Assembly: GCF_026914185.1 (NCBI RefSeq) | Contig: NC_070565.1 | Location: forward strand, 186,001-250,000 | DNA length: 64,000 nucleotides | Direction of reading: 5' to 3' | From: Puccinia triticina | Taxonomy: Eukaryota > Basidiomycota > Pucciniomycetes > Pucciniales > Pucciniaceae | Shown: one piece after another, positions 8,601-36,388 of the stretch | Layout: every line of letters begins with the position of its first letter | Position numbering within the stretch: the first letter of the stretch is position 1 | Translations under genes and position numbers: made by a program | The notes under the pieces: generated by a model | What the model saw: the letters and a program-made list of their open reading frames with translations, nothing else | Database searches by the model: none | What the model was told of the DNA's origin: nothing

Positions 8601-8609
8601 CGAAGTGGA

Positions 8610-14130: not shown

Positions 14131-16164
14131 TGTCGCTCAATAAAGGTCAGGATGTATCCTTGGTGGTGGCAAAGAGTCTCAAACGGTGTGGTAGAGGGAA
14201 AAGTGAAAAATCAAAAGTTTTTTCTCATACATATATTTACTTGTAATACGCCTCAAGATACCATTAAAAAGACCTCAGGAATGGATTCTACGGCAAATTT
14301 TACCCCTAGTCACCACTGGAAGCATCACCTGAACCCCACTGGATTGGAACCTACACTTCTTTGGACACTGGACACCCATCACACGTTCAACATACCCAGT
14401 CACCAGCCTGTCACAAGCCTCAAGTCAAGGATCACAGCATTATGCTTATACAAATCACAGGATACAAACATACATCTCCCCATCAGACTACAGTCATTAC
14501 ATATTATCAAGTACTCTTCTATTTCCATATTATGATGTCATCACACACTGACTCTGCAGCCTCAGACTTCATTTATGCACCCCCTGCATCCACCTGTTGA
14601 CTCATGCAGTCTAATTTCACTTTACGCAGCCTTCATGCGGCCCTACTGCATTCTTATGACATCATTTATGTACCCCTGACACATTATGACATCATTTGTA
14701 TCTACTCTCACCAGCTAAAATCCCTCACACTGTTGTTTAGATTAGTTGAAACCCTAACCCACAAGCCCTCTGGGGCTCCACTTTTTGTCTATATAAGGAG
14801 CTCTATCCTCCCCAGTTGTCAGCTCCTCAGCTCAGTATTCCCCAGTTATTTACATACCACCCTCACACTTACCATCACATCTATACCTCACCACAACCCT
14901 CATATTTGCAAATAACCACTGGACTCACTCTCAACTCTCACATACCTGTTGTCGAACAACTTCATCTGGAACTAGACCAGACCTATCACTTGATTAAAAC
15001 TTGCCAAGCTTAGCTTGGTGGGTCTTGTTATCTGATAGTATAGAAGGGCAGAGTTTGCACCTCCATCATCCCCTTCTCCATTCATCAAAAGGGTTTCACA
15101 ATCACTTTTGAGTCTTACAACGGTGTGGTGATCAATTCTGGAACACGTGTCAAATTGACCACGGAGCAATCAGTGCGGCGCACAGGCGGTGCGGAAACAG
15201 TGCAGAACTGAGCGGAGCGGAGCGCACAACTGAAGGCAACAGAGCGCAGAGCTCAACGGTGTGGAACTCCTACCGTGCCAGGCGGTAGGCAGTGCTTTGA
15301 AGGAAAAGTGGTGATGAGCCTGCCTTCCTGTGAGGTCCTAGGATGAATGAGATCTGAGAAAGACCAGAGAAAGGGGGTTGAACAACAATGTCAGTGAGAC
15401 TTGTTGGTGGATTTGGGGGTTGAGGATCTGGAAAGGGATGCTGATGAGGATCTTGAGGGTTGATAAGGATCTGATGAGGTGATGAGGATAAGGATCTGAG
15501 AATCCTGATGGTGTATTTCGTGGATCAGAAGACTGCCATGCCCCCCCCCCCATCATCTGAGTTTGAAGTTCAAACTCAGACTCCAGGAAGTGAACATGTC
15601 ACAGACATGTTCATCACATCCCTAACTACAAACAAGCTCTGCACAACACAAACAAAACAAAACACACAAAGAAAAGATCAACCACATACATAGAAAAATG
15701 AGGAGAGTAACATAAGAGGATGGGTGCAATGGATCAAAAAGAATGGAGAGAAAAATCAACAAAAATCATCAATATCAATCATAACTTCTTGAATCTTGAG
15801 CTTGAGATTTGAGATGGATAATCTTGAAGTCTTGATCTTGATAACTGGTCACTTGAATCTTGAGTCTTCATCTGGATCTTGAATCATGGACCGTCTGTAC
15901 CATTTTGCTCACCACAACCGCAGAACTGGACTCAGACTAAGCAGGCCAGCGCGGACTGGATAGCGGAGGTGGTGATTGGGGGAATCCGTGGCAGCCAGAA
16001 GGGTGGCGTGTGGGATCCTGACATGATAGGCTAGACAGGGGCGTGGAAGCTAGAGCAAGGAGTTTGACGGCGGTCGAAGGCAAGCGGCGGAGACAACAGG
16101 AGTTGGCGGATTACATGCGTGTATAGCGCTTGGCGGATGACAAGTGTGGAGTTTTGGCAAACGG
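14131..16164. other. non-coding stretch with an LTR-like promoter
   Basis: No gene supported. A TATATAAGG box (about 14791-14799), followed by pyrimidine-rich sequence and CTCAGCTCAG, resembles an LTR or RNA polymerase II core promoter. Repeated TATGACATCATT words lie upstream. A run of 12 C (15541-15552) and GC-rich blocks near 15180-15290 and 15960-16130 have no visible function. Open frames here lack any family resemblance. Confidence 0.4.
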
Positions 16165-16335
16165 ATTCTTCGGTCCCAAACCAAAGAAAAAGTGATCACA
16201 TCTTTGGTTTGCGACCGTACAGCTCCCAGAGCTGAGGGGGCCAGCTCTGCACATCAATGGTTTTTAACCGTATAGGTACCTGAGCTGAAGGAGCCAGCTC
16301 TCCACATTCTGAGGAGAGTACAGCAGCCCAATGAA
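16165..16335. repeat. left terminal inverted repeat of the giant element (hairpin part)
   Basis: Contains TTCTTCGGTCCCAAACCAAAG, itself partly self-complementary, then AGCTCCCAGAGCTGAGGGGG and a second GAGCTGAAGGAGCCAGCTC copy. It is the inverted counterpart of about 36225-36388. Confidence 0.8.
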
Positions 16336-18340
16336 ATAAATCATCAGCTCACCCAGCTCACAGAATCACCTCACTGTAGCCAGCTCACCCAGCTCTGCCC
16401 AACCCACACAGATCCAGCTCACCCAGCTCCACCAACCACACCAGATCACCCAGCTCATGCAGCTCCTGCACCACACATAATCTCCAGCTCACCCAGCTCC
16501 TGCACCTGTCATACTACCCAGCTCACCCAGCTCCTGCACCTGTCATAGTACCCAGCTCACCCACCCAGCTCACCAAGCTCCCCCACCACACATAATAACT
16601 AGCTCACCCAGCTCCCAAACCACACATTATACCCAGCTCACCCAGCTCCCAAGCCACACATAATACCCAGCTCGCCCAGCTCCCTAAAATACCCAGCTTG
16701 CCCAGCTACCTCACCACATCATACCTAAGCTCACACATAATCTCCAGCCCACACAGCTCCCGCACCACACATAATCTCCAGCTCACCCAGCCCCCGTACC
16801 ACACATAATCTCCAGCTCACCCAGCTCCCGCACCACACATACTCTCCAGCTCACCCAGCTCCCTCACCACACAGCATACCTAGCTCACCCTCACCCAGAT
16901 CACCCAGCTCCCACACCAAGCTCCCATACCACACATAATCTCCAGCTCACCCAGCTCCCGCACCACACATACTCTCCAGCTCACCCAGCTCCCTCACCAC
17001 ACAGCATACCTAGCTCACCCTCACCCAGATCACCCAGCTCCCACACCAAGCTCCCATACCACACATAATACCCAGCTCACCCAGCTCCCACACCACACAT
17101 ACTCTCCAGCTCACCCAGCTCCCTCACCACACAGCATACCTAGCTCACCCTCACCCAGATCACCCAGCTCCCACACCACACATAATACCCAGCTCCCGCA
17201 CCACACATAATACCCAGCTCCCGCACCACACATAATCTCCAGCTCACCCAGCTCCCTCACCACACATAATACCTAGCTCACCCAGCCCCCACACCACACA
17301 TATATAATACCTAGCTCACCCAGCTCTGGCACAACACATAATACCCAGCTTACCCAGCTCCCCAAAATCCCCAGCTCTCCCAGCTACCACACCACACATA
17401 ATACCTAGCTCACCCAGCTCACCCAGCTCACCCACCACACATAACACCCAGCTCACCCAGCTCCCCCATCACACATAATACCCAGCTCACCCAGCTCCCC
17501 CACCACACATAACACCCAGCTCACCCAGCTCCCCCACCACACATAACACCCAGCTCACCCAGCTCCCCCATCACACATAACACCCAGCTCACCCAGCTCA
17601 CCCAGCTCCCCCACCACACATAAAACCCAGCTCACCCAGCTCCCCCACCACACATAACACCCAGCTCACCCAGCTCCCCCACCACACATAACACCCAGCT
17701 CACCCAGCTCCCCCACCACACATAACACCCAGCTCACCCAGCTCACCCACCACACATAACACCCAGCTCACCCAGCTCCCCCACCACACATAACACCCAG
17801 CTCACCCAGCTCCCCCACCACACATAACACCCAGCTCACCCAGCTCCCCCACCACACATAACACCCAGCTCACCCAGCTCCCCCACCACACATAACACCC
17901 AGCTCACCCAGCTCACCCACCACACATAACACCCAGCTCACCCAGCTCCCCCAACACACATAACACCCAGCTCACCCAGCTCCCCCAACACACATAAAAC
18001 CCAGCTCATTGGCTCACCCAGCTCCTGCACCACACATAAAACCTAGCTCACCCAGCTCCGCACAGCACATACTACCCAGCTCACCTAGCTTCCCAAAATA
18101 CCCAGCTTTCCCAGCTACTACACCACAAATAATACCTAGCTCACCCAGCTCACCAGATCACCCAGCCCCCGCACCACACATAATACCTAGCTCACCCAGC
18201 TCCCACACCACGAATAATACCCAGCTCACCCAACTCTCCCAGCTACCACACCACACATAATACCTTGCTCACCCAGCTCCCGCACAACACATAATAACCA
18301 GCGCACCTAGCTCCCGCCCCACATATCCCGCACCACACAT
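16335..18340. repeat. left CAGCTCACC minisatellite, about 2 kb
   Basis: Tandem units of about 34 bp in the most regular part (17440-18000), with core CCAGCTCACCCAGCTCC and spacer CACCACACATAA. Units are less regular at both sides. Open frames rich in Pro/Ser are artefacts of the repeat. The right end of the element has the same unit inverted (core GGAGCTGGGTGAGCTGG, spacer TATGTGTGGTCC). Confidence 0.9.
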
Positions 18341-18934
18341 CCAATTGATTTCTTCATATTATGTGTTTGCAACATTGTTTTCATGGAAAAGAACTTTGAT
18401 CCCTCTTCTACCTATGTATACAAATAAGGTCTGCCACATAGTAACCTGGAACTTCTTATGTTTCCATTGGTGTTCTGACACATCCACAAACATCTCTTCT
18501 TTACACATTTTTTTCCATTTACCAGAGGAATAAAATTTAGGGTACAGAGAATTGTCCCTAAAACTAATTCCTGGAAATCTTTAGCAATAGTGTGTCAGAA
18601 TAAAATGACAGATAAACAGTTTGACGACTAGTTGTTGGTATCTCAATTCTATGCTTTAGCAGCACACACACAATATTTGCAGTGTTTGGTAATAATGTGC
18701 TTGAGTTATTTTGCAGTGCATGCATGGGAGTGGTGTTATGTGTTGCTTGTAGCAGAAAAGGCCAGCATGGCAAAGCAGAAACAGCACAGCCGGGCAAAGC
18801 AGAAACAGCACGGCGCAGCAAAGCTGCAGCCATCACCACAAGACTGAGTCACATACCACAATTCATCACACAAGTCTCAACCAAATCACCCCACCCATCA
18901 AGCCTACCATCTAATCAATTTCCAACAATTCAAA
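18341..18934. other. non-coding DNA between the left minisatellite and the first cargo gene
   Basis: No gene seen. AT-rich sequence, then from about 18750 a short AAGCAGAAACAGCAC tandem repeat, probably part of the promoter or 5' UTR of the RGG-box gene. Confidence 0.4.
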
Positions 18935-20624
18935 ATGGTTGCAACTAGATCAAACCAGGCCCAAACAGGAGGAACAGTCATCACAGGTGGAATCAGCCGA
19001 AGAGTCGAACGAGGGAGTCGTGGAGGACGAGGCGGTAGAGGCGGCTACAGAGGGAGTGGAGGCAGTCAACGAGCTCAAGGGCAAGAACAAGGACCTAATG
19101 GAGTCGGAACGGCACACAAAGGAGGCGGACGGGCACAGGAACAATCCCAATCTGAATCGGGGGACAACCAATACCATACCAGTAGGCACCAACATAACAA
19201 TCAAGAAGAAGAGCCCCTACCTTTTGAGTTAACATTGGAAAATTATGAGAGTCAATTAAACAATTGGACCGAAAACCAACTCCGAAAAGTTTTAGAAAAA
19301 CAGAGCAAACCATCGAACCGAATCCCAACCAACATAGAAGAGGCACTTCGATTCCACAAAAGGAACTACATAAAGGCAATCTGAAAAGATGGTCAACTCA
19401 TTTCTGTGTGTTCAATTAGAATAAACTGATTCACCTACTTTGCAACAACTAACAACTTTCCATTACAATCACAGGGGTGAAAATCAACCACCACAAAAAA
19501 AAGCAACTGGAATCGCTATGTGGCATTCAGCATGGACAGTGCCGAGATACCAGGTTGGCACCTCCTCTATAAACTTGTTTCAATATCAAAAGATTGACAA
19601 AGTTGTATTCCTTCAGTGCCTCCACGACATTGCTCTATTGGATGGGAGGAAAGGAATGTTAAAATAGGACAAGCGTGGAAGAAACGATCCCCGACTGAAA
19701 GAATGGTATTCGATGCACGGATATTTGGTTTCTTCTCCAAACTTCCAATCCATTACTGTGACGATGAAAATATGGAAGATGGTGAAGATGAGGAAAACCA
19801 ACCTGCTGATCTTCTTACTCCAGAGGAAGAGGTTTTGTATAGACCCCTCTACGAAGATTTAGTTAACCATGAGAAGGTCGCATTGGTTGCCGACAAACCA
19901 CCTGAGCTTGGCACCAAAGACAAAAAAAATGCCCTCAAGCATGTCATGCGAATCAATGCAGAGGTGATTGCAAATCTTTTGTTTTGGAATACTTGGTTGA
20001 GATACTGACCTATGCCCTCAAAGCTCTTTACTATTTCAAACCTTTACAACTTGACCTTCTATCTGTTGTCTGCCACCAGAAATCCAGGAATCAGCAGCTT
20101 CTGCAAAGAGTTATCAAACGATCAGTCCTGGCTGGGAGTGGCAAAAGACTACTGGGTTGCCAAGGAAACCTTTGAAGCATTTAGTCATGGACGGGATATT
20201 CAAAAAATTGTACAACGATGCTCTTTGCAACAAGCCTCTGAATCAGATCCCTCAGCTCCCTCCAATCCTCGCCACGCAAAAAGGCCCAAACGTAGTGATC
20301 AAATACGATCCCAGCTTCGTGCTCAACTTAACAGTTTGCTGGGTGAGTAATTGAACCACCATTAATCTCTGTGCAATGCTGATTTTTGAAATCACAGCTC
20401 AAGCTCTAGGCCGCGACAAAGTCAATTTTCCGAAGCAAAGGGATCCTTTGTCAATTGTATCTAAGGATTATCCTACTGTGAAGATTCTCCGATCAGAAGA
20501 TTGCACTCTAAGTGAGGAAGTATTGATGGTCGGATTAGAATCAATGCACTCAGAATATAGAGAAAAATGGCTTAATGATATTGAGCGTGGGGCTTTCCAA
20601 ATCCTTCCTCAAATACCCGAATAG
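18935..20624 (+). CDS. RGG-box protein of unknown function, cargo of the giant element
   Basis: ATG at 18935 opens MVATRSNQAQTGG, followed by an Arg/Gly-rich box (RGSRGGRGGRGGYRGSGG) typical of RNA-binding tails, then Gln/Glu-rich sequence and a helical block (LENYESQLNNWTENQLRKVL) up to 19384. Protein-like sequence in the same direction continues at about 19660-19960 (AWKKRSPTERMVFDARIFGF, an acidic stretch, LVNHEKVALVADKPPELG), 20040-20345 (NPGISSFCKELSNDQSWLG) and 20398-20624 (LSIVSKDYPTVKILRSEDC). These look like exons of one gene, but only some junctions are clean and a frameshift cannot be excluded. No family recognised. It is divergent in direction from the neighbouring dioxygenase gene: the two 3' ends face each other about 200 bp apart. 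Confidence 0.55.
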
Positions 20625-20826
20625 TGTTTTTTCCTTAACTGCTTTTGATATAATTAAAAATTCATATTCATCTCAAATTTAAACCATTTTGCTTATCTTC
20701 AAGAAACAAAAGTTTTGAACTGATTTAATATACCGATTTTGAGCTTAACATTCAGATGATCAGAAATGGAGTAAAAATTTAGAAACTAATTAATAAGCCC
20801 GAATGATTTTAATTAGAAACTAAATA

Positions 20827-22608
20827 CTAAACAGGAATCATTTGCTTGTTTTTGATTGATTCTATCTTCCTAATTTTCTTATCAATTTTACATTCTTCTT
20901 TGAACAAATCACGAACTTTTTCCAATGAGTATTCCGGATAAAGGGGTAGCCAGTATGCCGGATCACTAAAAATCTGTACCATAAAGTGTCAGACTTAGCT
21001 CTGAAAAGGACATAGTTATTCACAAAGGGGCTTACTTGATTACCGGCTTTGTACGCAGCCCCTCGAGCAATAGCTGAAAAAGTCGTAGCCCTGCTCCACA
21101 TAGCCAGAGAAAAGCGCCTAGGTTCCTTGACTTCTTCCAAGAAGTAATGTTGTGCCACACCATGCAAAAGGATACGAAACGGTCCATGGAATGAGTATCC
21201 ATGCAATCCACAGTATGCCACCCCAAGCAATGGGAGAATAAACTCCCCACCAAGATGGTTCCCGAAAAAGAATACGCTGTCCATTAAGAGGGCATTATTA
21301 ATGTCGTGGTGGGTGTAAGGCTGCACATTCACTGAGACAGTTCGAGCTGGGAGGTAGTGATTCTCAGGAGTATATTTTATAATCAGGATGAACTTGTAGA
21401 AGACTTACAAGCAACAATTCGGTTGTTTTCTCGTTCAATTGCTTCTTTGACAGCCGAGGATCGATTTTTGGATAAAAATTCAATGGCACGTTCGGCAACG
21501 GCAGATGATTCGGGTAGGAAGATTCGATTTATCCAATACAAAAGCTTTGAATAAAATACAGTATCATATCGAAGCTCAACTAAGCCACAAAGGGTTGCAC
21601 CAGTTTCAGACCGCATTGGTTCCGGAAGGTGAGGTTTGGGTTCAGACTTCCATTCTTCACCATGGCCCTGCAACTCTTCAGTCTTGATTTGGTGAGTTGA
21701 ACATGGAATCTTCTTGTCGGCAGCTCCGGCTGAGAGTGGCTGCTTGCAGTGAATGTTGTGTAAGTTATTGAAACGTTGTCCAAAAGAAGAATACTCACAC
21801 TGCCTAAGCCAAATCCATATGTTTGATGAGAGCACATTGAATCCTTGGCCCCCTTTGCAGAACGGACAAGGCCTTTTGGGTTGGATGAGAGTGGAAAGGG
21901 TGATTGCGGATGTGGAGCAGTGTTTTTGTTTGGACCAATGCGGACAGCCTCATCTTCTTTGATTTTAACAACATTTTTGGATACAAACGTATCCAGCGTC
22001 TTTATGGCCCGCACCTATTGGCAAAGAAATTGATGGGTTAAATTGATTCCATCCTGTTGACAACAAATTGTGGAATTACATACATCACAGGGCATATGGC
22101 CGGTCTTGTCAGATGGAGGCTTTGGTGGAAGTCCAACTCCAACACAAATACCACCCTCATCAATCAGCACAACCATGACGTCGGTTGGCAACACTTCGCA
22201 CATCTTTTTGAGTTTGCTGGAATGCTGTAGAACCAATTCATATGTTGGAAAGCAGAGGCAAAAAGGTTTTCTGGTGCTGGGGTTAGTCTTCAATTGGTCC
22301 TGGTACGTCTGAATCCGAGTTTTAACCAATTTTGCTGCATTAACAATTTGATACATCAGCATGTTTTGAGGTGGGGTGGCCTCAGTAAAAGCCCCCTCAA
22401 CCATTCCGATGATCTTGCAGATGTGATGTCCAGCATCAAATCCCTGCATTAGAAAGACTGCCAGTAGATCAAAGTCAACAACCTTTGTAATCGCCAAAGA
22501 ATGCTGTTTCTGCAAGAAGTGGAGTGCTTGCAAGTTGAGGCTGGAGGTGTCTTTGTAATCGGAGCCCCGTTCAAATCCAACTGAAACCTGTGATTGGCTA
22601 GAATCCAT
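20827..22608 (-). CDS. TET/JBP-like 2-oxoglutarate/Fe(II) dioxygenase, five exons, intact
   Basis: Predicted to oxidise a modified base (5-methylcytosine or thymine in the TET/JBP family) in the nucleus; substrate is inferred. Five exons on the minus strand: 22608-22084, 22014-21799, 21742-21409, 21346-21036, 20973-20827, with GT-AG introns of 56-70 nt and agreeing phases. The total is 1533 nt, or 510 residues, with no in-frame stop. The catalytic double-stranded beta-helix is in exon 4: an HxD motif followed by Asn (YTHHDINNA; H371, D373), the strand FFFGNHLGGEFILPLLG (384-400), and the distal His in ILLHGVAQHY (H420), with Arg 436 (PRRFSL) as the likely 2-oxoglutarate anchor. The first 350 residues match nothing I know. 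Intact exons beside decaying neighbours suggest recent function. Alternative: another 2OG oxygenase subfamily of the same fold. Confidence 0.72.
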
Positions 22609-23195
22609 CTTTATTGGTTGAATTCGGGGTCAGTTTTCAACGCCACCAGTTGGTGTAAGTGTTGTTGTGGGGTAAGGATCAATAACCCCTTGTCTTCGCG
22701 TCAAGTGGTTATTGATCCCACCATGTGGTGGCAGGTGAGGTTTCGCACTTCATCCCGCCATCACACAGCACCCTTGACAACATCCACCAACCTGTGAAAT
22801 ATTTTTTTTGTATGTATGAAAAGTTGCTTACTTTGACCATTGTATAGTTGATTGGCTAACTACCTGCACTGATAAACCTAAAAGCACTAACTGCGCGAAT
22901 GATTAAATTTATGGTCAGAACACCAAAAGAGGTTATTTCCACAATAAGATATTGAAATTAGCAGTAAGTGAAAATGGGGGGGGGGGGGGGGGGGGGGGGG
23001 GGGTGCTTGGAATCAGTTGATCAGTGTATGCTCGGAATCCAATCTGATTGGAGTTCGTTTGGGCTGGATGCTGCGGATGGCTTGAGGATTGGCTGACTGA
23101 TCGGGATCCATAGTACTGTTTGGATGAGGGTGGCTTGTGGGAGACAGGCACTTTTGTGACCTCGTGTATTTGATTCAGACCTGTATCTCTCATCA
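22609..23195. other. non-coding DNA with a 28-base G run
   Basis: Contains the probable 5' flank of the dioxygenase gene and a homopolymer of 28 G at 22976-23003. No gene seen; a Pro-rich frame on the minus strand is created by the G run. Confidence 0.5.
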
Positions 23196-23199
23196 TTCA

Positions 23200-23969
23200 A
23201 CCAAAACATTCGAAAAAAAGAAGAAAAAAAACTTCAGATTCTCTGCCGCAAGAAATAGAGCGTGCATGATTAAATTACAGTCAAACTGTATCGGTTTTCT
23301 TGACAGACTGTATCCACTGCCAGCCGCGCCACCTTTGATTCTGAATGTTGGGCCCTGGGAAGGCTGTCGTACGGTTGCAAAAGAGGGCTTGGACCAGGCC
23401 GATAGCATTGGTAGATTTACCTTCTCCTAGAGGAGTAGGTGTAATACTGTTTGTGGGTGTGGGTGCAGTAAAAAAATCAGCTGGTTGGCCAGCTTGGACT
23501 CGATCACAGATGATAGACATACCCAACAACCCCTACATATTTTCCAGACTGTCGGGAGGTCCTGAGTGTACCTATGGCACTGGGTGACGGTGGCATTTTT
23601 GCAACGGAGAAGAGAGCAGACTGGGGTGCCAACGATATCACTCCGGCCCAAGACGACGGCATGCTTACAGGAGAGTTGAAAGCCGGTAGAGTCGATCAAT
23701 CTGATGACCCCGGCGGGGGTGCACGGGTTAAAGAGTGGCTCGGAGCCCCTGGAGCTGAGCAGTCCGAGGTTGTACGCATGGAAGCCGTTGACATCCTTCT
23801 GGGGACTGACGGCCTCGGTCAGCCGACGCTCGCCCTCCTGACCAATCGAAGCTTTCAGAGGGAGCTGGACCAAGAGCCACTTACGAGCTTGATCAGGATT
23901 GTGCTTGAGGTACTTGCAGATGATTTCTGTCCATGATAGGCCGGGGCCAACGGTGTTTGGAAAAGACAA
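23200..23969 (-). pseudogene. captured fragment of C1-tetrahydrofolate synthase (ADE3/MTHFD1-like)
   Basis: Minus strand. The first part is the methylenetetrahydrofolate dehydrogenase/cyclohydrolase domain: LLVQLPLKAS, QKDVNGFHAYNLG, NPCTPAGVIRLIDSTGF and AVVLGRSDIVGTPVCSLL. After an internal deletion it passes to the N-terminal part of formate-tetrahydrofolate ligase: [20 protein letters not shown], then in another frame [20 protein letters not shown] and a degenerate [12 protein letters not shown]. The linker, most of the synthetase and the N-terminus are missing, and frames change at least twice. A functional enzyme would be about 930-950 aa. Unexpected inside a transposon: a captured host gene piece. 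Confidence 0.85.
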
Positions 23970-23999
23970 AATAATCCATGATCTTAATGAGAAATCAAC

Positions 24000-24190
24000 T
24001 TGGGCCTACAAGTCCGATTGATCCAATGGTAGAAAAACTACATACCTTTGGCGAGGTTAGTGGTTGGGGTGATTAGGTACCCTTGGCGGTGATGGGCGTG
24101 GATTGAGCCCATGATCCGGCTGATCTGACCAAGTCGAACGCGAGCATATCAACTTGGGCCTACAAGCCCGATCGATCCCACAGTAGACAA
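24000..24190. repeat. short direct duplication between the captured fragments
   Basis: ATCAACTTGGGCCTACAAG followed by a CGATxGATCC-type block and GTAGA-AAACTACAT occurs near 23994-24045 and again near 24148-24195, with a few differences. Confidence 0.6.
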
Positions 24191-24450
24191 ACTACATTGT
24201 ACATTGTTCACAGACAGATACATGCATTGGTAGATACTCACCTGATGGCGAGAGATGATAGACATCCCGTTTGAAGGAGGGTGTGCAATCGATGAGGTTG
24301 TACTGTCCGCCGGCCTGAGCCAGGCGATCACGTGTAGGACGGACCTCGTAGATCGGGACGCCGACTAGTCGCAAGAGCGTGGCGAACTCGAGCAGCAATG
24401 AGCCGGCGCCCGCCGTGCATGTCTCAGTACCTTCCCCAGCCACGACACCA
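24190..24450 (-). pseudogene. captured fragment of an EDEM-type GH47 alpha-mannosidase
   Basis: Minus strand, near 24443-24320: INLRYGVVAGEGTETCTAG and AGSLLLEFATLLRLVGVPIY correspond to the GH47 block VNLKTGV...ETCTAGAGSLL.EF..LSRL of ER degradation-enhancing mannosidases. The downstream residues (YEVRPTRDRLAQAGGQYNL) diverge quickly and no other GH47 motif is present, so only a short piece survives. The family acts on misfolded glycoproteins in the ER. It lies next to the folate-enzyme fragment on the same strand, and both are GC-richer than the surrounding element. Confidence 0.65.
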
Positions 24451-24579
24451 TATCTGAGATTAATCTAAGAGGTGTAGGGAAGGTAGTGAGTGAATGAATG
24501 GAGGAAGATTCAGGATAAGAGGAAAAGGTGGTGGTGGTGGTGGACGAACGCGAGCATCGTCCGTCCGTAGCCTCGTGGG

Positions 24580-24893
24580 CTGGTGCGTGCACCCTCGTCG
24601 GATCCTTGGACTATGCTGCCCCGGCGTCGGCGTCGGCGCTGATGGTCGGTCCGGGCGGTTTCCGGGACGCAGTCGCGTGTCCGAATGTGTCTTTGTCAGC
24701 GAGGAGGCCGACTGCACCTGGTTTGATGCAAACGACATGGGGTCTGAGACCCTGGGCTTCCAGTCGAACAGCTTTGTTCTAGAGGGCTTTGACGATCGTC
24801 CCGAGCTTTACCCCTTCTTCATGACAGTGGAGAAGAAGTTAATCCAGTCGAGGGGGATTGTGCTTGATAGGGCGGCGTTGTGACGGTCGTCCG
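24580..24893 (-). pseudogene. unidentified captured coding fragment
   Basis: On the minus strand a protein-like reading runs from about 24890: NAALSSTIPLDWINFFSTVM, then in a second frame after a shift LEAQGLRPHVVCIKPGAVGL and LADKDTFGHA, with an in-frame stop between. I do not recognise the family. GC-rich composition and position match the other captured pieces. Confidence 0.4.
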
Positions 24894-25705
24894 GGGTAAG
24901 AGGTCTGTCAGTAGTGGCGAGGGAGATGGGTTTTCTGTTCAATTTTGGTACGATTTCAGTTCACGGGGGTGGCCATCATCAAGAAAAGATTCTGATCTAC
25001 AAGTGGGATATCTTACATTCTTTGCCCTGCCTGATTGATGTGGGTCCGGTCACCGCCACATGTTGAGTTCAAGTCCTGCCGCCAGAGCATCTCGGAAATG
25101 GGGTGGACTGGACTGCTAGCATACATACAGCCAATCCGCCGCTTGCCATGACCTCACCTCGACGACCCAATCTGAAACTGTTCTAGGGGGAAGAAGAGAA
25201 GAAGATGGTGGGAGGGAGGAGGGGTAGAAAGGGGACAGGATAAGTGAAATTAAGAAATACTTACAGGTTGCTTGACCCCAGGAATTGATAGTTCGAAGCC
25301 GGCAATGAATGTGGTCCATGGATGTAGGCGCACATTGGTTTGAAGTGGATTGGGCCCCCGGCTGGGGAGTTTGCCCCCGGACCAGTATACACCAACACTT
25401 GATATTGAAGTCCTCCTCTTTGGCAATTCAAGAGTAATTTGCAAAGGAATGCAAAAAAAAGATAATTATGTTTGGCAAACCTGCAGATACAATGCAAGAC
25501 AATTTGAATTGATCAAAATTTTCCTTTTGGGTAGATGATAATTTATTCATCAAAAAGCTATTGTTGTTAACAACAAGCACTGTTAATAGTTCCTTTGGGA
25601 CTGGTAATTGTTTCCGGATGAACTATTAACAGTGCTGGACAAAAATGAAAGGATGTCTTTGATTTGCAGAAATGATTCTGAATCCAAAGACTTCCCACTG
25701 GCAAC
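24894..25705. other. non-coding DNA within the giant element
   Basis: No gene or clear repeat recognised. It separates the captured fragments from the MITE. Confidence 0.4.
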
Positions 25706-25708
25706 TAA

Positions 25709-26096
25709 GGCCCTGTTTGGCACTGATATAAATATAGGTGATATAATCACTGGTTAATTGAATAAAAAATACAAAATTCAACATAAAGCCTCCAAATGTT
25801 TTTTGTAGGCAACCTACAGTGCTGGTCTCTTCAACTGTGAACCCAGAATCAACTTATCCAGCCATCTTCAGCACCATAATACCATTATATCACTTCATAT
25901 TGGTCAAAAGTGATATAATGGTATTATGGGGCTGAAGATGGCTGAATCAGTTAGATCTGATTTCAGATTTGAAGAGACCAGCACTGTAGGTTGCCCACAA
26001 AAAAAATTTGGAGGCTTTATGTTGAATTTTATATTTTTTATTGAATTAATCAGCAATTATATATCACCTATAATTATATTGGTGCCAAACAGGGCC
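25709..26096. mobile_element. PIF/Harbinger (Tourist-like) MITE, 388 bp
   Basis: Ends GGCCCTGTTTGGC at 25709 and GCCAAACAGGGCC ending at 26096 are perfect inverted repeats, flanked by TAA at 25706-25708 and TAA at 26097-26099, the 3-bp target of this superfamily. The inverted similarity extends almost through the whole element (AAAGCCTCCAAAT against ATTTGGAGGCTTT; CAGTGCTGGTCTCTTCAA against its complement), so the strand can fold on itself. No coding capacity. Confidence 0.92.
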
Positions 26097-26099
26097 TAA

Positions 26100-26682
26100 T
26101 ATGATTTTACTATCTTCAGACTTCAATGATTAACCACTTTGAGAGCAACATGCACTTTTTTTGTCTTATTTTTTTATTTGGGAATCAAATTGGATATTTT
26201 GATCTCAAAAAATTATCAGAAGTAATGAACTGTGCAAAACATCACAGAAGAGCAATCCTTTATCTCAATCAATAATTTATAATTCATCATGTGAGATGCA
26301 CTGGATCCGGAATATAATTACAATGTCAGATTAGATACCTACTGATAATATTTCATTTGTTTGCAGCAGACCATTAGGACAGTTATGTGTACCTGCCAGA
26401 GGTCATACCAAACCACACTCTAGTATGACAATCTCATGTGGTAGTTTGGCTAGGTTCAATCAGGGCTTTGTTCTCATGACTTGACCAGAGAATGAATTCT
26501 TGGTCAGGTTGCAGACCCCACAACGGGGAGTTGTAACCAGGTTGTAACCTGGGAGATTTAAAATCAAAACTATCTCTCTCACACAGTTCAAGTTGAATCT
26601 TTCAACTCAGAGTTGGTCACCTTCAACTGTTCAACTCGAAATGCGTGGATTTGAAGGTGAGGGTGGCAAGAAGTCTTGACGG
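26100..26682. other. AT-rich region upstream of the KDZ transposase
   Basis: Non-coding; likely promoter and first-exon region of the transposase. A short frame from ATG 26640 (MRGFEG) ends in a possible GTGAGG donor and may be the first exon. Confidence 0.35.
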
Positions 26683-29600
26683 CGGAAAAAACCACGAACG
26701 GAGAAAGGCAGACAATACATACAGGAATCCAAACAGGCCAGCCAGAACTTTATAGCTTCAAATAGGACACACATCCCACCTTCGAACCTTCATGAAGAAA
26801 CTTATAGTACTGATCACCATAATCTTCAAGGACAAGGAATCGACCTCAATCCAGGTGAATATGATGATCAACCCATGAATCATGAAGCTGATCCTCAGGT
26901 GCAGGGGCTTCACGAATACCTGACCAGCCAAAACTACAAACGAAGAAAACTATTGGAAGAAAAAAACTGGGAAGAGGTATATAATCAGATGTTCACCTGG
27001 TTCTACCAGTGTTCAGCTAAAACAAACACTTGGGGGAATCTTGAAAACTGGGATCATGACTGGAAGCCTGGATGCCACTGCGCAGAAAGTCGAACTCGAC
27101 CTATGATTCTGGTTGATATATTAAGTTCTGCTGCCTTTCTAAACTTCCTTCCTTGACATCATTAAAGCAGTGGCTGAGACTGGAATTTTTCATACATATC
27201 TATTCAGCTCAAAAGCAGTCGGATGTCCAATTTTGTAAATGTCAGCCCGATCAAGTCCGCCTCATCCAGATGGGCTACATAGGTGGCTCCCCCAAGTTCC
27301 CAAGGACAGCTTTTTTGATTCAGTTGTTACAGTTTCACCATATACTATGGAAGAATAGTGCAGTGGCTATGTTACCATTTTCTAAAGCACTGGACGAGTT
27401 CTTGGATGCAAACAATCCACTTGTTTTGATCCCAAAGAAAAATGAAGATGACCCTGAAATCTCTGTTGGTGTAAGTTTTATTCCTCTTTTATCTTATTTT
27501 ATGTGTTTAACCAGCCCATTTCTACAGACTCGCCAATGGAGAAGAACCCTTTCTTCAGCTGTAGATGCCTTTCGCGAAATGTTACAGAGGGAAAAACTCA
27601 TATGCGACCAGCTTTTTGGTATGGGATCCATGGACAAGTTGGCTGATATCTGTCCAGTGTGTTATGGTCCCCATGTTCCTGGGAAGAAAGACCATGAACC
27701 CGATTTCATAGTATGCATGGATGGAAATTTTCAGCACCGGAGACATAAGGAAGCTAGTTTGGAGATACCTGAAACTCTCAAGACCCCGAGCCTCTTTGTA
27801 CCTGCCGAAGAGGTTGCTGAAATGGAACAGTACATGAATTGAGCCTATCAGAGAAACAACAATCCTAGGGATACTGTAGTAAAAATTACTCAAGGCTAAA
27901 CACATTGTGTTGATCGCTAATGTTAATTTTTTTCATTTAGGATCCGTGTGGTCAGAGCCACACAGCTGCGGATGATGCAAGGACTGGCGGAACCTGGAAG
28001 GAGTGTGACGATACCGGTTTATTTGGAATGGCATGTCGACATGATCAGATGATACGGATCATCAACATTGTTCAGAGCGGTGAAAAGTAAGTCTTTGGTT
28101 GGTTGGGTTGAATATCTCTGTCTTGCTAAAGTAACTTAATCACCCTTTGATCAAATCCGACCAATCATTAGGGCTTATTTCCCAATGACTATGATCAATA
28201 ACCTCATAGAAAGTACCAAACAGGGCTTCAGTCGGAAGAAATTGGCTTTTTTGTATGATATTGGGTGTCATGTTGAAAAGGGTATAGTCCGAGTAAGCAA
28301 ATTAAAATGAGCGATTGTTTTATAATTTTCTTACAGATTTTTTTATTCCTCTTTCCTAGCGAAATCAATTCCCAGAAGAACTAGAATCCAATCTTCTGAT
28401 GTTCGGAACAAGTGTATTCCATTCTTATGTACATGAGTGGTCTTGCCAGCTTAAATACAATCCCAGGCTGAACAAGGGTTGGGGAATGTCTGATGGCGAG
28501 GGCTTAGAACGGAGATGGTCTTCCTTGTCCCCTTTGATTGGCCCACTTCGATACTCATCAAAAAACCACAGACTTGTGGCAGTCAACATTCAGTTGGAAC
28601 ATCACAACGAGATAGGAAAGACTTATTCATGTAAGATTTGAATACTCCGCATTTTTGTACATAATGAATCCCTGTATACTAATCCCGTAAAACAGTCCGA
28701 TTGTTGTTACATTGGGCAAAGCATATATTAACGATTTTGAAAAAATCCGAGGCGGAATTGCAAGATATACGGGATGAAACTGGCTATGAATTGTCTTATT
28801 TCAAGGAGCAATGGGATCGGCAGAGGCAAATCCAGCTTTCAGCAATTGAGACCGATACTGAAAAACAGATGAGAGAACAAGTGGAAGCCCTTGTTGAGCT
28901 GGAGGACAAACTCCGAGAGACACAGTTGGGTTTTTATCTCTTATCTAGTTGTTTGTTGCACCAGGAATCAATATTTTTTTCCATTTGTTAAATACCCAGC
29001 TATGATATGATTCAACTTAGCCAGACCCGGAGACGAAATTGTACCGAGGCACAGTCACAACAATTAGGACAACTTCCAGATACATTAATAAGTCTTGAAA
29101 GTGAGATAGAGCAAGCAATTGAGACACTAGGCTCTGACAAATTCCGGAATTTGGCTGGCGGCTCTGGTTTGTGATCTTAAATCTTGAATAATGGAAGCTT
29201 ACTTGTTAAGTTGTTACTCACAAGTATGTATTGGATGTAGATCCACAAACAAGGTCTTTGATCAAGCTTAAAATAAGCAAGTCAAAACTTTACGAAGCCA
29301 AAGTTGGTGTCCTTGAGATTCAAAGGAAGTGGGACCAAAGGGGATCCGGTAGGGCTTAACTTATCAAGCAACCTCTCAACAAGGATTCAAGCTGACAAAA
29401 GTTTACAACACTTTAGGAACTCGAGCCCAAGCCAGATTTAAAAAGCTGATGAATGCTAAGATGTGTCTTATGCGGAAGAAATTGGTTGCATATAATAACC
29501 GAGCAGATCATCACAATTCAACTTTCACCCCTGAAAACCTGTTAGAGACACCGACTTTAGATGATGTCAAAGCTTTTGAGATCGACAATCCTTTTTGGAA

Positions 29601-30265
29601 TTTTGGCTCGCTAAACCATCCGTCTGAGCCGTGGGCGGTTGATTTGAACACAATAAATGGAATCCGTGCATATCTTCAGGTTACTAACTGCCAGGATGAG
29701 CTGCATCGAATTGCAAGGGAGGCGAGGCAGGGGATGCAATGGGCAATTGAAAAATCGAAGAAAATTGACAATATTGGTGCCCTGTTACAAGATTGTGGGT
29801 ACACATATTTTTTGCCGAACTTCAAATCCAAACTGAAGTTTCATTACATCTTTGTCTATGATAGATCAGACAGGCCATGTCGTTCCTTCTTCAGAGGGAC
29901 AAGATCAATTGCAGCAAATCTGTTCAGAGAATGGATTCCCTGTGACTGTACTCCAATCAATTTTCAGCAACCTCGCCAAATCTCACTGTCGTCTTTGGAT
30001 GTCGTGGAATTGCCACTGCTTGGAACTGCTGAGATGGAGTCGCCCCTTTGTTGAAACTGCACACGAAGCTGAAGAAAATCTCAAGGAGCAGTGGGATTTA
30101 TTAATCATGAACTCCCAGGAAATATGGAGAAAACTAATTGGTGTTGAAACCGTTATGATGGAGTTTGAAACACCGGATGATCAAGAGGAGGAGGATGTTT
30201 TAGAGGATGAAGCATTACAATTCCACGAAAATCCATTCCCATTTAACCAAACAGAAGATATGTAG
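26683..30265 (+). CDS. KDZ-family transposase (Kyakuja-Dileera-Zisupton), multi-exon, one nonsense codon
   Basis: The transposase of the giant element. Upstream part: KGRQYIQESKQASQNFI (about 26690), then a cysteine block (WKPGCHCAESRTRPMILVDI, FCKCQPDQVRLIQMGYIGG). The catalytic region follows in family order: CPVCYGPHVPG, DFIVCMDGNFQHRRHKEAS (first Asp, about 27700), TWKECDDTGLFGMACRHD (about 28000), FLYDIGCHVEKG (second Asp, about 28260), SVFHSYVHEWSCQLKYNPR and GMSDGEGLERRWSSLS (Glu, about 28500). A coiled, acidic C-terminus ends at 30265. Introns visible: 27471-27527, about 27877-27940, 28088-28171, 28293-28360, 28631-28695 and several later. TGA at 27840-27842 interrupts an otherwise conserved reading (MN, stop, AYQRNNNP) and would be explained by CGA to TGA. 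The first exon is uncertain. Confidence 0.85.
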
Positions 30266-30389
30266 TTGCTTTAGCTGAAAAAGAAAGAAATGTATGTGAT
30301 CTGCAAGTGTGCAACTCGTTCCAAACTTCCTAATACTTTCCTCTCCTGTGGCCCATCGGTCCCCAATTATACTCCAGTTTGTCAAGATT

Positions 30390-31235
30390 GTGGGGGTCGC
30401 GGCACCCAGGTGTCGCACCCGTTTTCCTGAAAAATAGGCACCGCACCCGTACCCGGCACCTGCCGGCGGGTGCCGCGGGTGTACCGGCGGTGTACCGGCG
30501 GGTGCCGCCGGAAAGGATCCCTTCCGGGAGACGAGGCTGTTGTAGTCTTGTTGTCCGCAAGGGATCCGCGGACGACGAGGCTACAACAGCCTCGTCGCTC
30601 GCAAGGGATCCGCGGACGACAAGATACAGCCTCGTCGCTCGCAAGTGATCCCTTGCGGGCGACGAGGCTGTATCTTGTCGTCCGCAAGGGTTCACTTGCG
30701 GACGAGGAGGCTGTATCTTGTCGTCCGCAAGGGATCACTTGCGGACGACGAGGCTACAACTCGTCGTCCGCAAGTGATCCCTTGCGGACGACGAGATACA
30801 GCCTCCTCGTCCGCAAGGGATCCCTTCCGGGAGACGAGGCTGTTGTAGCCTCGTCCTCCGCGAGGGATCCGGACGACGCGGCTACAACAGCCTAGTCTCA
30901 CTGAAGGGATCCCTCCCGGACGACGACGCTACAACAGCCTCGTCTCCCGGAAGGGATTCCTCCCAGACGACGAGGCTACAACAGCCTCGTCTCCCAGAAG
31001 GGATTCCTCCCGGACGACGAGGCTACAACAGCCTCGTCTCCCGGAAGGGATTCCTCCCGGACGACGAGGCTACAACAGCCTCGTCTCCCGGAAGGGATTC
31101 CTCCCGGACGACGAGGCTACAACAGCCTCGTCTCCCGGAAGGGATTCCCGCACCAGGCACCCGCGCGCGGGTGCGGGGCAGGTGCCGGAGGTACCTGCCA
31201 ACAGGTGCCGGGTACCTGCCGCGGGTCCAACAGCA
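30390..31235. repeat. GGTACC-rich block enclosing an array of inverted GACGAGGC / GCCTCGTC units
   Basis: The outer parts (30415-30505 and 31150-31230) are rich in GGTACCTGCC/GGCACCCG words and roughly mirror each other. Between them, units of about 40-50 bp contain AAGGGATCC, GGACGACGAGGCTACAACAG and its complement CTCGTC in alternating order, with near-identical copies at 30940-31140. The layout resembles the fold-back element at 5100-6430. The limits and any target duplication are not clear. Confidence 0.7.
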
Positions 31236-31380
31236 GATTCTCTATGAGTTGGCAACTGTCCGCGGCTGTCAGCAACCTTCAAGCACAATCACCAGCACTC
31301 ACTTGTCCAGGAGCTTGCACAGTGTCTGGTGGGAATAGGCATCCAGCCAGAGAGTGGGCTCATTGGGCATGTTGAGCTAC
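31236..31380. other. short non-coding spacer
   Basis: No feature recognised. Confidence 0.3.
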
Positions 31381-31508
31381 ACACTGGGTGGGGGCACACT
31401 GGGTGGGGGCACACTGGGTGGGGGCACACTGGGTGGGGGCACACTGGGTGGGGGCACACTGGGTGGGGGCACACTGGGTGGGGGCACACTGGGTGGGGGC
31501 ACACTGGG
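31381..31508. repeat. 15-bp minisatellite, 8 copies plus a partial one
   Basis: Perfect tandem copies of ACACTGGGTGGGGGC. Because 15 is divisible by three, all six frames stay open, which creates spurious repetitive ORFs. Confidence 0.95.
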
Positions 31509-32453
31509 CAGGAGACAAAAAAAGACAGTGGAAAGGGCAAAAATGGAGTGATAGGGTGTTGGGAGGCTGTTGAAGCTGAGGCGTTTGAAGGTGTTGACCG
31601 GGCCTACAGGTCTGGTTCCATGAGACAAACCCCTGTAATTTCTTGAGGCCATACAGATGTTCTGTAGTGCCAGAGTTGGCTTCATTGGATGGAGGGGCAG
31701 GAACAACAGCCCAGTTTTCACGCAAATACAGGAAAACCAACTGGAGTGTTGTTTCTTCCCAGTTTCTACTGTCCTAGACTGGCAAAATTTATTACGCTAT
31801 GCTATGGGGACACCCATCCTGCTACACTAACCTATAGTGTAGCTGATTTGCAACAACTACTGCTGCAGCAGTGCCACCAGCATCTGGACGTCTGCCACTG
31901 CTGCATTCCCCCAATCAATCTTCCTATCACCCTTTGCCACCCTTGGACCTTATAACCACATTCAGACACAGAAAAATCAGCTCACTGATGCTGAAAAAGC
32001 CGTCAGTGGTGTTCAGCAGCTGTCAGTGGCCATTCAGCTGTTTTCCCACTGTTCTGCCACTGACACAAGTAGTTTTCAACTGGAAACAGTGTGAGCAGAG
32101 GCTCAAATCACTGTGCCACTGATTGGTTGCTGATTGAGCAAGCTGAAATTCAAGAAAGTTCTCCAGTCATTTCAATCAGTGCTTAGCACATTGCTACACC
32201 AGCTGATTTGCAGTGCAGTGCAGCCCTCCCAAAAGTTGCCACACTGACAGTTTTGCTTTTCTGTTTGCATCACAGCCATTAGTGCGGGGAGCTGGGTATG
32301 TGTGTGCTAGGCGGAGCTGAGCATGTGTGACACTGTGGGCCAGCTATGCTAACTGTAGCATAGCAGAATTGTGCTAGCTTTGAGTGTAGCATTATCAGAA
32401 TTCTGCCATCTCTTTGCTAATGCTACACACACAGGGTGCAAAAAAGTGACCCT
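31509..32453. other. non-coding DNA
   Basis: No gene seen. Contains several short GCTATGC / GCAGTGCCAC-type repeats that may be remains of CACTG-ended MITEs. Confidence 0.3.
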
Positions 32454-32668
32454 CACTGCAAGAAAAAGTTGCGCACCTTCAAGCAGTTCACATGTGAGAG
32501 CATTGGGAAAAGTTTCGGTGCTACTCCATCCTTTGTTGAGTTGTGTTGACCAACCTTCAATGCACATTCACTGTGCATGATGCACAGTTACTGTGCAAAA
32601 AAAGACTGTCAAGTGTCTGGGTGGAGCTAGAACAACTGCTTTTGTATGCGTGAGTTTTTCTTGTAGTG
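32454..32668. mobile_element. CACTA-type MITE, 215 bp
   Basis: Ends CACTGCAAGAAAAAG and, inverted, CACTACAAGAAAAAC. Inside it carries a CTTCAATGCACA...CACTGTGCA hairpin also present in the MITE at 50081-50327, so the two belong to one family. Flanking CCT and CAT agree at two of three bases, so the target duplication is not proven. Confidence 0.65.
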
Positions 32669-32929
32669 CATATGTTGCACTACTGCACCATGTAGCAGAC
32701 TTTTGGCCTATCTTGACCTATTTGACCACCAAAAGGGCCATAGAGAAGTTAATGTAGCTTATTGGCAGTAGCACATTGCTATTCTAACTCTACAGGAAAT
32801 GTGGACACTGTTAGTGCTGCTACACTGAAACCAAGTGGCCCTGTAGCGTGGTGTAGCATAGCAGCCTACCATTGATGTGTGTGGTAGGCAGAGATGGGTG
32901 ATTTGGAGATCCGGACAATCTGGGTATAT

Positions 32930-35900: not shown

Positions 35901-36225
35901 TGGGGTTGGTGGAGCTGGGTGAGCTGGGTATATGTGTGGCCCAGGGAGCTGGGAGAGCTGGGTGTAGTGGTGGGGTTGGTGGAGCTGGGTGAGCTGGGAA
36001 TATATGTGGTCTGGGGGGCTGGGTGAGCAGGTTGTAGTGGAGCTGGGGGAGCTGGGTATATGTGTGGTCTGGGGAGCTGGGGGAGCTGGATATATGTGTA
36101 GTGTGGGGAGCTAGGTGAGCTGGGTGGTGGACAGAGCTGGGGGAGCTGGGTGGTGGACAGAGCTGGGGGAGCTGGGTGAAGCTGTGTGGTTGAAGGAGCT
36201 GGGTGAGCTGACTAATTGGATTTCA
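32930..36225. repeat. right GAGCTGGGTGAGCTGG minisatellite, interrupted
   Basis: Inverted counterpart of the left array. Weak units start near 32930-33030, are interrupted by about 1.6 kb of other sequence (33050-34650), and the dense array runs from about 34660 to 36225 with cores GGAGCTGGGTGAGCTGG and spacer TATATGTGTGGTCC. Long Gly/Val/Leu/Trp-rich frames here are artefacts of the repeat. Confidence 0.88.
33045..34655 (+). repeat. LTR-like insertion in the right minisatellite
   Basis: About 1.6 kb unlike the surrounding array. It contains GGCTATAAAAAGGGCCC (TATA box about 34073-34082), followed by pyrimidine-rich sequence, and it may run from TGGCAGAGCC near 33039 to GGCTGACA near 34655, giving TG...CA ends. 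I found no convincing 5-bp target duplication. A solo LTR is the best guess; no coding frame resembles a TE protein. Confidence 0.4.
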
Positions 36226-36388
36226 TCTGCCTGGCTCTCCTGTGACTGTGGAGAGCTGGCCCCCACAGCTCTGGGGGCCATTCAGTTTGAAACCGTCAAT
36301 AAGGAGAGCTGGCCCCCTCAGCTCTGGGCGCTATACGGTCCCAAACCAATGATATGACCATATTTTCTTCGGTTTGGGACCGAAGAAT
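36225..36388. repeat. right terminal inverted repeat of the giant element (hairpin part)
   Basis: Contains GAGAGCTGGCCCCC, GCTCTGGGGGCC, a second GAGAGCTGGCCCCCTCAGCTC, CGGTCCCAAACC, and the terminal CTTCGGTTTGGGACCGAAG hairpin. It is the inverse of 16165-16335. Confidence 0.8.

What the first reader, a model, noticed from the sequence alone, without database searches (positions are those of the whole stretch)
20827..22608. Intact TET/JBP-like dioxygenase as cargo of the KDZ element
Seen: five exons with consistent phases, 510 residues, HxD (H371/D373) plus Asn, GGEFILPLLG strand, distal H420 and candidate R436. Known: I recall that TET/JBP genes expanded together with KDZ transposons in some basidiomycetes. 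Inferred: this is the same partnership in a likely rust, with the dioxygenase still open while the transposase has a nonsense codon. A mobile enzyme that can oxidise 5-methylcytosine would let an element counter methylation-based silencing.
Basis: partly seen in the sequence, partly recalled or inferred. Interest (0 to 1): 0.95.

Follow-up and report, generated by a model that had tools for sequence, protein, structure and literature searches.

The report
Transposon-borne TET-like DNA dioxygenase gene
A rust-fungus jumping gene carries its own TET-like enzyme gene, probably one that acts on methylated DNA; this pairing is already published, and here the enzyme leaves no sign of having shielded its element from methylation-type mutation.

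Summary
Window 20827-22608 (-) is a five-exon, 510-residue gene with the TET/JBP active-site pattern. It lies inside a 20,256-bp KDZ transposon (16149-36404) with inverted ends, a KDZ/CxC1 transposase and a third gene. Two near-identical copies elsewhere have different exact 8-bp target duplications, so the dioxygenase moves with the transposase. Of 32 TET loci, 20 lie within 25 kb of a same-subfamily transposase, all 20 head-to-head (0.44 expected).

Plain Pfam and PDB searches do not recognise the protein. A profile of its relatives aligns to phage TET/JBP proteins with the active-site motifs in register (0 of 200 shuffles reach the score). Spacing predicts a 5mC-type pocket (N376, S382, W442, R444).

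The partnership is already in print for Puccinia (Kojima 2025, citing Iyer 2014).

Counter-silencing is unproven. The three copies carry strong TCG hypermutation scars. Four TET+ families are hit as hard as five TET- KDZ families. In this family TET shows no recent purifying selection (17 nonsynonymous, 4 synonymous codon differences). Ten related loci keep transposase and third gene without detectable TET, so TET looks like an optional module.

The parts
16149..36404 (.). whole KDZ transposon, 20,256 bp
   Evidence: shared block with copies on C5 and C9, bounded on both sides
16141..16148 (.). left target-site duplication, CAAGTGTG
   Evidence: 7 of 8 identical to the right one; the C5 and C9 copies have 8 of 8
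36405..36412 (.). right target-site duplication, CAAGTGTC
16149..16328 (+). left inverted terminal repeat (first 180 bp compared)
   Evidence: aligns to the reverse complement of 36225-36404 from about base 17 inward
36225..36404 (-). right inverted terminal repeat
16345..18323 (+). left subterminal tandem repeats, units of about 34 bp
   Evidence: inverted counterpart at the right end
34658..36210 (-). right subterminal tandem repeats
18848..20624 (+). third gene of the element, function unknown (outer limits approximate)
   Evidence: ORFs; 41 loci in the genome, 23 tail-to-tail with TET, 29 near the KDZ subfamily
22084..22608 (-). TET exon 1
21799..22014 (-). TET exon 2
21409..21742 (-). TET exon 3 (or to 21745 or 21739)
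21036..21346 (-). TET exon 4: H371, D373, N376, S382, H420, R436, W442, R444
20827..20973 (-). TET exon 5 and stop
23427..24005 (-). captured fragment of a methylene-THF dehydrogenase/cyclohydrolase gene
   Evidence: PF02882 E 2.4e-22; in all three copies; likely parent at C7:6954833, 79%
26680..30265 (+). KDZ transposase region (split frames)
   Evidence: 27117-27842: CxC1 PF18802 1e-25, KDZ PF18758 7e-4; 98% copies on C5 and C9. The flanking frames 26680-27156, 29353-30054 and 29837-30265 have no Pfam match.

Best explanation
The gene encodes a TET/JBP-type 2-oxoglutarate/Fe(II) dioxygenase, of the PU type by its host and setting. It travels as an accessory gene inside a KDZ cut-and-paste transposon, Dileera-like by published association, together with the transposase and a third gene. 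Shown here: the gene structure, the active-site pattern, co-transposition, and repeated pairing with this transposase subfamily. Inferred: the enzyme oxidises 5-methylcytosine rather than N6-methyladenine, because N376 and S382 sit where conventional Tets have Asn/Asp and Thr/Ser, and it relieves CG-methylation silencing of the element's genes enough to allow transposition. Also inferred: this benefit is transient and does not stop the TCG-type hypermutation that later breaks transposase and dioxygenase alike. The gene was selected over the long term, but the window's own family now shows no purifying selection and its transposase frame is interrupted, so this copy probably no longer moves by itself.
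For: Gene model and recurring introns. Active-site residues kept across copies. hhalign of 9 relatives against 8 phage TET/JBP proteins: score 31.68, E 8.7e-4, 92 columns, with HxDxxN, GG..LP, HGV and R.S in register; 0 of 200 column shuffles reach it (best 23.1). Three insertions with inverted ends and 8-bp target duplications. 20 of 32 TET loci within 25 kb of a same-subfamily KDZ (19 distinct transposase loci of 33), 20 of 20 head-to-head, 0.44 expected by uniform placement; 15 of 32 within 10 kb, 0.18 expected. 23 of 32 within 15 kb of the third gene, all 23 tail-to-tail. Long-term constraint: dN/dS 0.15 for L005-L008. Substrate mapping from PMC11040006. CG methylation of young transposons in P. 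graminis is published (PMC8444563).
Against: The window protein has no Pfam Tet_JBP hit. Of 9 longer exon 3-4 relatives only 1 hits Tet_JBP (E 0.033), beside two unrelated families at similar E, and an unnamed PHROG scores better (E 0.0098, 2 of 9). No TET appears in PDB sequence or profile searches. hhalign probability is only 23%. The one fold model was useless (mean pLDDT 53). TET+ families show no less TCG hypermutation than TET- families. Recent changes in this family look neutral (17 nonsynonymous, 4 synonymous). R436 is lost in 13 of 31 copies. Ten loci have the KDZ and the third gene without detectable TET. No expression or methylation data.
Confidence: 0.72

Rival explanations
1. The transposon-borne dioxygenase protects its element from C-to-T hypermutation itself, as Kojima suggests: it removes 5mC before it can deaminate.
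For: Proposed in PMC12730594 section 4.2. The hypermutation exists here: 64 of 155 singleton differences among the three copies are CpG transitions, 49 of the 64 in TCG/CGA context, against 211 of 716 CpG positions.
Against: TCG hits scaled to non-CpG change: TET+ families 63, 40, 37, 50; TET- families 49, 65, 75, 21, 6; Mann-Whitney p = 1.0. Raw TCG hits per site are if anything higher in TET+ (p = 0.06). The arginine R436 is itself often lost by CpG-type changes.
Confidence: 0.12
2. The gene is a passenger now: captured once, useful to ancestors, decaying without function in the window's own three-copy family.
For: 17 nonsynonymous to 4 synonymous codon differences among the three copies, one of which has a stop; window vs C5 copy dN/dS 1.8 on few changes; private stop in the window's transposase frame.
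Against: Two of three copies still have open TET frames, and all three keep the splice sites; at least 8 of 32 loci read open through exons 1-4 in the models. Other pairs give dN/dS below 1: 0.15 for L005-L008 and 0.35-0.52 for four within-family pairs. With so few changes, TCG mutation alone could inflate nonsynonymous counts.
Confidence: 0.35
3. The enzyme modifies DNA in another way (5-glyceryl-methylcytosine like CMD1, thymine hydroxylation like JBP, or 6mA demethylation like CcTet).
For: Kojima notes that other activities cannot be excluded for the PU type. Similarity to characterised Tets is weak. One phage homolog listed is annotated as a thymidine hydroxylase.
Against: N376 (14 of 14 rows) lies at CcTet Gly331 = hTet2 Asn1387 and S382 (13 of 14) at Asp337 = Thr1393, by equal spacing from the first His, the pattern said to favour 5mC and exclude 6mA. 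No sugar-transferase gene was seen in the eight other ORF pieces of the element scanned with Pfam; the element was not searched exhaustively.
Confidence: 0.15
4. A host dioxygenase gene that merely sits next to a transposon.
For: A host-derived THF dehydrogenase fragment in the same element suggests that host DNA can be captured.
Against: Same gene in three insertions with different target duplications; 32 loci, 20 in the same head-to-head layout with KDZ.
Confidence: 0.02

Closest known systems
TET+ Dileera DNA transposons of Pucciniales (Zisupton-1_PGr; families in P. graminis, P. triticina, M. larici-populina), PMC12730594
   Same: KDZ transposase plus TET/JBP gene in one element, 8-bp target duplication, rust host
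   Different: I could not compare sequences (supplement not available), so I cannot say whether this exact family is catalogued. A third gene and TET-less sister elements are not described for Dileera in what I read (sections 4, 23, 26, 34 and part 1 of 3 of section 9).
AG-type TETs of Kyakuja transposons and CcTet of Coprinopsis cinerea
   Same: transposon association; HxD..H..R; by spacing an aromatic at CcTet Phe391 and an Arg at CcTet Arg393
   Different: Asn376/Ser382 here against Gly331/Asp337 in CcTet, so 5mC rather than 5mC plus 6mA is predicted; no sequence match to CcTet in the PDB searches
Phage TET/JBP proteins (Mycobacterium phage Nigel gp2 and relatives)
   Same: HxDxxN, GG..LP, HGV, R.S in register over 92 columns
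   Different: 22% identity; no transposase context
hTet2 and NgTet1
   Same: iron triad and 2OG-arginine pattern; Asn at the hTet2 Asn1387 position by spacing
   Different: not detected by plain sequence or profile search of the PDB; even phage Nigel gp2 finds NgTet1 only at E 0.31

Membership tests
TET/JBP 2OG-Fe(II) dioxygenases | HxD...H iron triad and distal 2OG arginine | tested here: met
   H371/D373/H420/R436 in the window; conserved in copies apart from frequent loss of R436
TET/JBP 2OG-Fe(II) dioxygenases | profile similarity with motifs in register to accepted members | tested here: met
   hhalign against phage TET/JBP, 0 of 200 shuffles reach the score; hhalign probability itself is only 23%, and no other 2OG family was compared
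TET/JBP 2OG-Fe(II) dioxygenases | Pfam Tet_JBP (PF12851) above gathering score | tested here: inconclusive
   No hit for the window protein; weak hits in 3 of 14 exon-4 relatives, best E 0.025, and in 1 of 9 exon 3-4 relatives, E 0.033. The accepted phage member Nigel gp2 also falls below the cut-off (26.5 of 34.9 bits), so the cut-off is not a fair test.
TET/JBP 2OG-Fe(II) dioxygenases | double-stranded beta-helix fold with clustered triad | tested here: inconclusive
TET/JBP 2OG-Fe(II) dioxygenases | oxidation of 5mC (or T) in DNA | not testable with these tools
   needs biochemistry
KDZ transposons | KDZ transposase with cysteine cluster | tested here: met
   CxC1 1e-25 above its cut-off; KDZ 7e-4, below its cut-off on this partial exon
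KDZ transposons | inverted termini and 8-bp target duplication (Dileera/Zisupton; Kyakuja has 7 bp) | tested here: met
   AAAACACG and AGAATAAT exact in the C5 and C9 copies; 7 of 8 in the window. A 7-bp reading of the window copy alone is possible but would not fit the other two.
Dileera subgroup of KDZ | placement in the Dileera clade | not tested
   no reference sequences to hand; inferred from Kojima's statement that Puccinia TETs go mainly with Dileera among KDZ
PU-type TET | PU-specific conserved residues (Kojima Fig. 7) | not tested
   figure and supplement not held; inferred from host and transposon context

The most novel reading that the evidence does not exclude
The transposon's TET does not shield its DNA from the host's TCG hypermutation and may even feed it: oxidised 5mC, or its faulty repair, could raise C-to-T change at TCG. 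TET would then be a short-lived expression booster that the element pays for in mutations, which would explain why it is gained and lost as an optional module while the transposase and third gene persist.
Probability: 0.1. Interest if true: 0.75.

Novelty: already known. Interest (0 to 1): 0.4.

Why it matters
Transposons that carry a DNA-demethylation enzyme would be a eukaryotic parallel to phage anti-restriction. That such elements exist in rusts is known; whether the enzyme helps the element is not. This one genome holds related KDZ families with and without TET and a readable mutation record, so the protection hypothesis can be tested by sequence alone. The small first test made here shows no protection.

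Tried and rejected
Pfam Tet_JBP search of the whole genome found nothing, but its 14 controls found nothing either. Pfam and PHROGs scans of the window protein and relatives gave only weak Tet_JBP hits, a few unrelated Pfam families and PHROG hits (two unnamed, one HTH protein) at E 0.0098-0.2. PDB sequence and profile searches gave DDX19 helicases, acyl-CoA hydrolases and others at E 0.03 and above; rejected as chance. Fold prediction of exon 4 alone was meaningless, so no fold search was run. The host-gene reading was rejected by the target duplications. I set aside the window copy's possible 7-bp duplication because both other copies give 8 bp.

Limits of the TCG comparison: nine families of 3-5 copies; TET regions in TET+ families against transposase regions in TET- families; three of the five TET- families belong to other KDZ subfamilies; changes polarised by majority only; in two TET+ families 62-74% of TCG sites are already hit, so rates there are saturated (a Poisson correction was applied). 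TET- here means no TET match within 50 kb; the nearest is 54 kb. In one search the tandem-repeat regions were left out and sites where all three copies differ were not counted.

Rows dropped and limits of counts: the 34 matches were merged to 32 loci; 31 of them have an exon-4 match. Alignment A1 uses 14 of those 31 and A2 uses 9 of 27 modelled copies, chosen without stops in the piece used and to avoid most near-duplicates. One search scored 150 of 247 candidates and its list is cut, so the KDZ set is a lower bound. One search used 48 rows of at least 57% identity and by oversight left out two short rows; one search repeats it with all 50 rows (33 loci): still 20 of 32, expectation 0.44 instead of 0.41. 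Uniform placement ignores that transposons cluster. One search entered the same KDZ set, without those two rows, as 32 places.

Full report
What is there. The window is C8:186001-250000 of a 122.8-Mb genome in 18 contigs. That matches P. triticina haplotypes (18 chromosomes, 121.8-123.8 Mb; PMC10627818, passages); the species is inferred, not shown.

Copies. A genome search with a 180-residue piece found 34 matches, which I merged to 32 loci. Two besides the window are 98% identical (C5, C9); the others are 38-66%, apart from one 25-residue scrap at 92%. Modelling 27 copies recovered four introns of 53-107 nt at the same places in 21. At least 8 of 32 loci read open through exons 1-4 in these models (window, L002, L005, L009, L010, L011, L014, L020; two more, L012 and L013, have no stop in the models but change frame in exon 1). 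Of 31 copies with an exon-4 match, H371 is kept in 24 of 25 that cover it, D373 in 23 of 25, H420 in 29 of 29, but R436 in only 18 of 31. R436 is glutamine in 6, a stop in 3 and another residue in 4; the glutamine and stop codons are those that CpG-type transitions of an arginine CG codon would give.

Is it TET/JBP? Direct searches do not say so: no Tet_JBP hit for the window protein and no TET in the PDB searches. Three of 14 exon-4 relatives hit Tet_JBP weakly, best E 0.025, over profile positions 81-163 of 164; of 9 longer relatives only one did, E 0.033. To test further I took phage Nigel gp2, which hits Tet_JBP at 4e-6, itself below the curated cut-off, and seven relatives. The profile of nine rust relatives aligned to these phage proteins at score 31.68, E 8.7e-4, over 92 columns, with HxDxxN, GG..LP, HGV and R.S in register. 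None of 200 column-shuffled versions reached it (best 23.1), and the reversed profile scored 10. The hhalign probability is modest (23%), and no other 2OG family was used as a control.

Substrate. The CcTet paper (PMC11040006, passages) assigns Gly331 (hTet2 Asn1387), Asp337 (hTet2 Thr1393, NgTet1 Ser238), Phe391 (hTet2 Tyr1902) and Arg393 (hTet2 His1904) to base recognition, and His326, Asp328 and Arg385 to iron and cofactor. Counted from the first iron histidine and from the 2OG arginine, the rust protein has Asn376, Ser382, Trp442 and Arg444 at these places. Across 14 rows N376 is kept in 14, S382 in 13, W442 in 13 and R444 in 12. The phage proteins share the Asn (8 of 8) and have an aromatic Tyr (8 of 8), but not the Ser/Thr or the Arg/His. 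This spacing argument predicts 5mC and not 6mA as substrate. It is inference.

The element. Comparison with C5 and C9 bounds a shared block at 16149 and 36404. The ends are inverted repeats with subterminal arrays of about 34-bp units. The 8-bp target duplications are AAAACACG (C5) and AGAATAAT (C9), exact, and CAAGTGTG/CAAGTGTC (window, 7 of 8). Eight bp is what Kojima reports for the Dileera element Zisupton-1_PGr. Inside lie the KDZ/CxC1 transposase, the TET gene, a third gene and a captured THF-dehydrogenase fragment. The window transposase frame 27117-27842 ends in a stop that the other two copies lack.

Association. 20 of 32 TET loci lie within 25 kb of a transposase of the same subfamily (19 distinct transposase loci of 33); all 20 are head-to-head; 0.44 would be expected under uniform placement (one search gave 0.41 with two rows missing). 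The third gene has 41 loci; 23 are within 15 kb of TET, all 23 tail-to-tail; 29 are within 30 kb of the KDZ subfamily; 10 have KDZ but no TET. Two further TET queries found none at those ten (single-exon queries, so a very divergent TET could be missed). TET thus looks like an optional part of an element whose core is the transposase plus the third gene. The other 12 TET loci were not assigned; Kojima reports seven transposon lineages with TET in rusts.

Does it protect? Among the three copies, 155 singleton differences in 14,546 aligned columns include 64 CpG transitions, though CpG positions are 716 of 14,546 (p 6e-42). Of these, 49 are in TCG/CGA context, which makes up 211 of 716 (p 1e-14). 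This is the hypermutation that Kojima cites for Pucciniomycotina. Four TET+ families and five TET- KDZ families compare as 63, 40, 37, 50 against 49, 65, 75, 21, 6 for TCG hits scaled to non-CpG change (p = 1.0); raw rates lean higher in TET+ (p = 0.06). No shielding is visible, within small numbers and unmatched genes. In the TET coding sequence 21 codons differ among the three copies, 17 nonsynonymous and 4 synonymous; one copy has a stop. Other comparisons show constraint: dN/dS 0.15 for L005-L008 and 0.35-0.52 for four within-family pairs; synonymous sites are saturated between the window and all ten more distant copies tested.

Prior work. Kojima 2025 (PMC12730594; outline, passages, sections 4, 23, 26, 34 and part 1 of 3 of section 9) describes PU-type TET genes in seven transposon lineages of rusts, including Dileera in P. 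graminis, P. triticina and Melampsora, and credits Iyer et al. with the KDZ association. The supplement could not be consulted, so the exact family may or may not be listed. In P. graminis young transposons are CG-methylated (PMC8444563, passages). A search for Puccinia with 5-hydroxymethylcytosine returned two papers, Kojima and a review (search listing), so I found no report of oxidised cytosine measured in a Puccinia in this library.

Verdict. The added points are three: proof of co-transposition for this family, the optional status of TET next to a conserved third gene, and the absence of a protective mutation signature.

Noticed in passing
window 23427-24005 (-): A piece of a methylene-THF dehydrogenase/cyclohydrolase gene captured in the element and present in all three copies; a 79% match on C7 (6954833-6955982) is the likely host parent.
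   Followed up: partly
window 18848-20624 (+): Third gene, with no credible Pfam match in the two pieces scanned, that accompanies 29 of 32 transposase places of this KDZ subfamily, with or without TET. Function unknown.
   Followed up: partly
window 25576/25577: Both other copies carry extra DNA at exactly this junction (634 bp on C5, about 2.8 kb on C9): an insertion hot spot or a deletion in the window copy.
   Followed up: no
G000:C7:3872537-3873877: Remnant of a fourth copy of this family: third gene at 92% and 25 residues of TET at 92%.
   Followed up: no
codon 436 of TET in the genome's copies: The predicted 2OG arginine is lost in 13 of 31 copies, 9 of them (Gln or stop) by codons that CpG transitions would give, while the iron ligands are nearly always kept.
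   Followed up: partly
window 8496-11456 (+): hAT-type transposase fragments (RNase-H domain E 3.8e-7 in 10905-11456), outside the KDZ element.
   Followed up: no
window 37118-40248 (+): Another repeat family, 150 matches listed in the genome for one piece, directly right of the element; no Pfam match in three pieces.
   Followed up: no
window 22976-23003: Run of 28 G between TET and the THF fragment.
   Followed up: no
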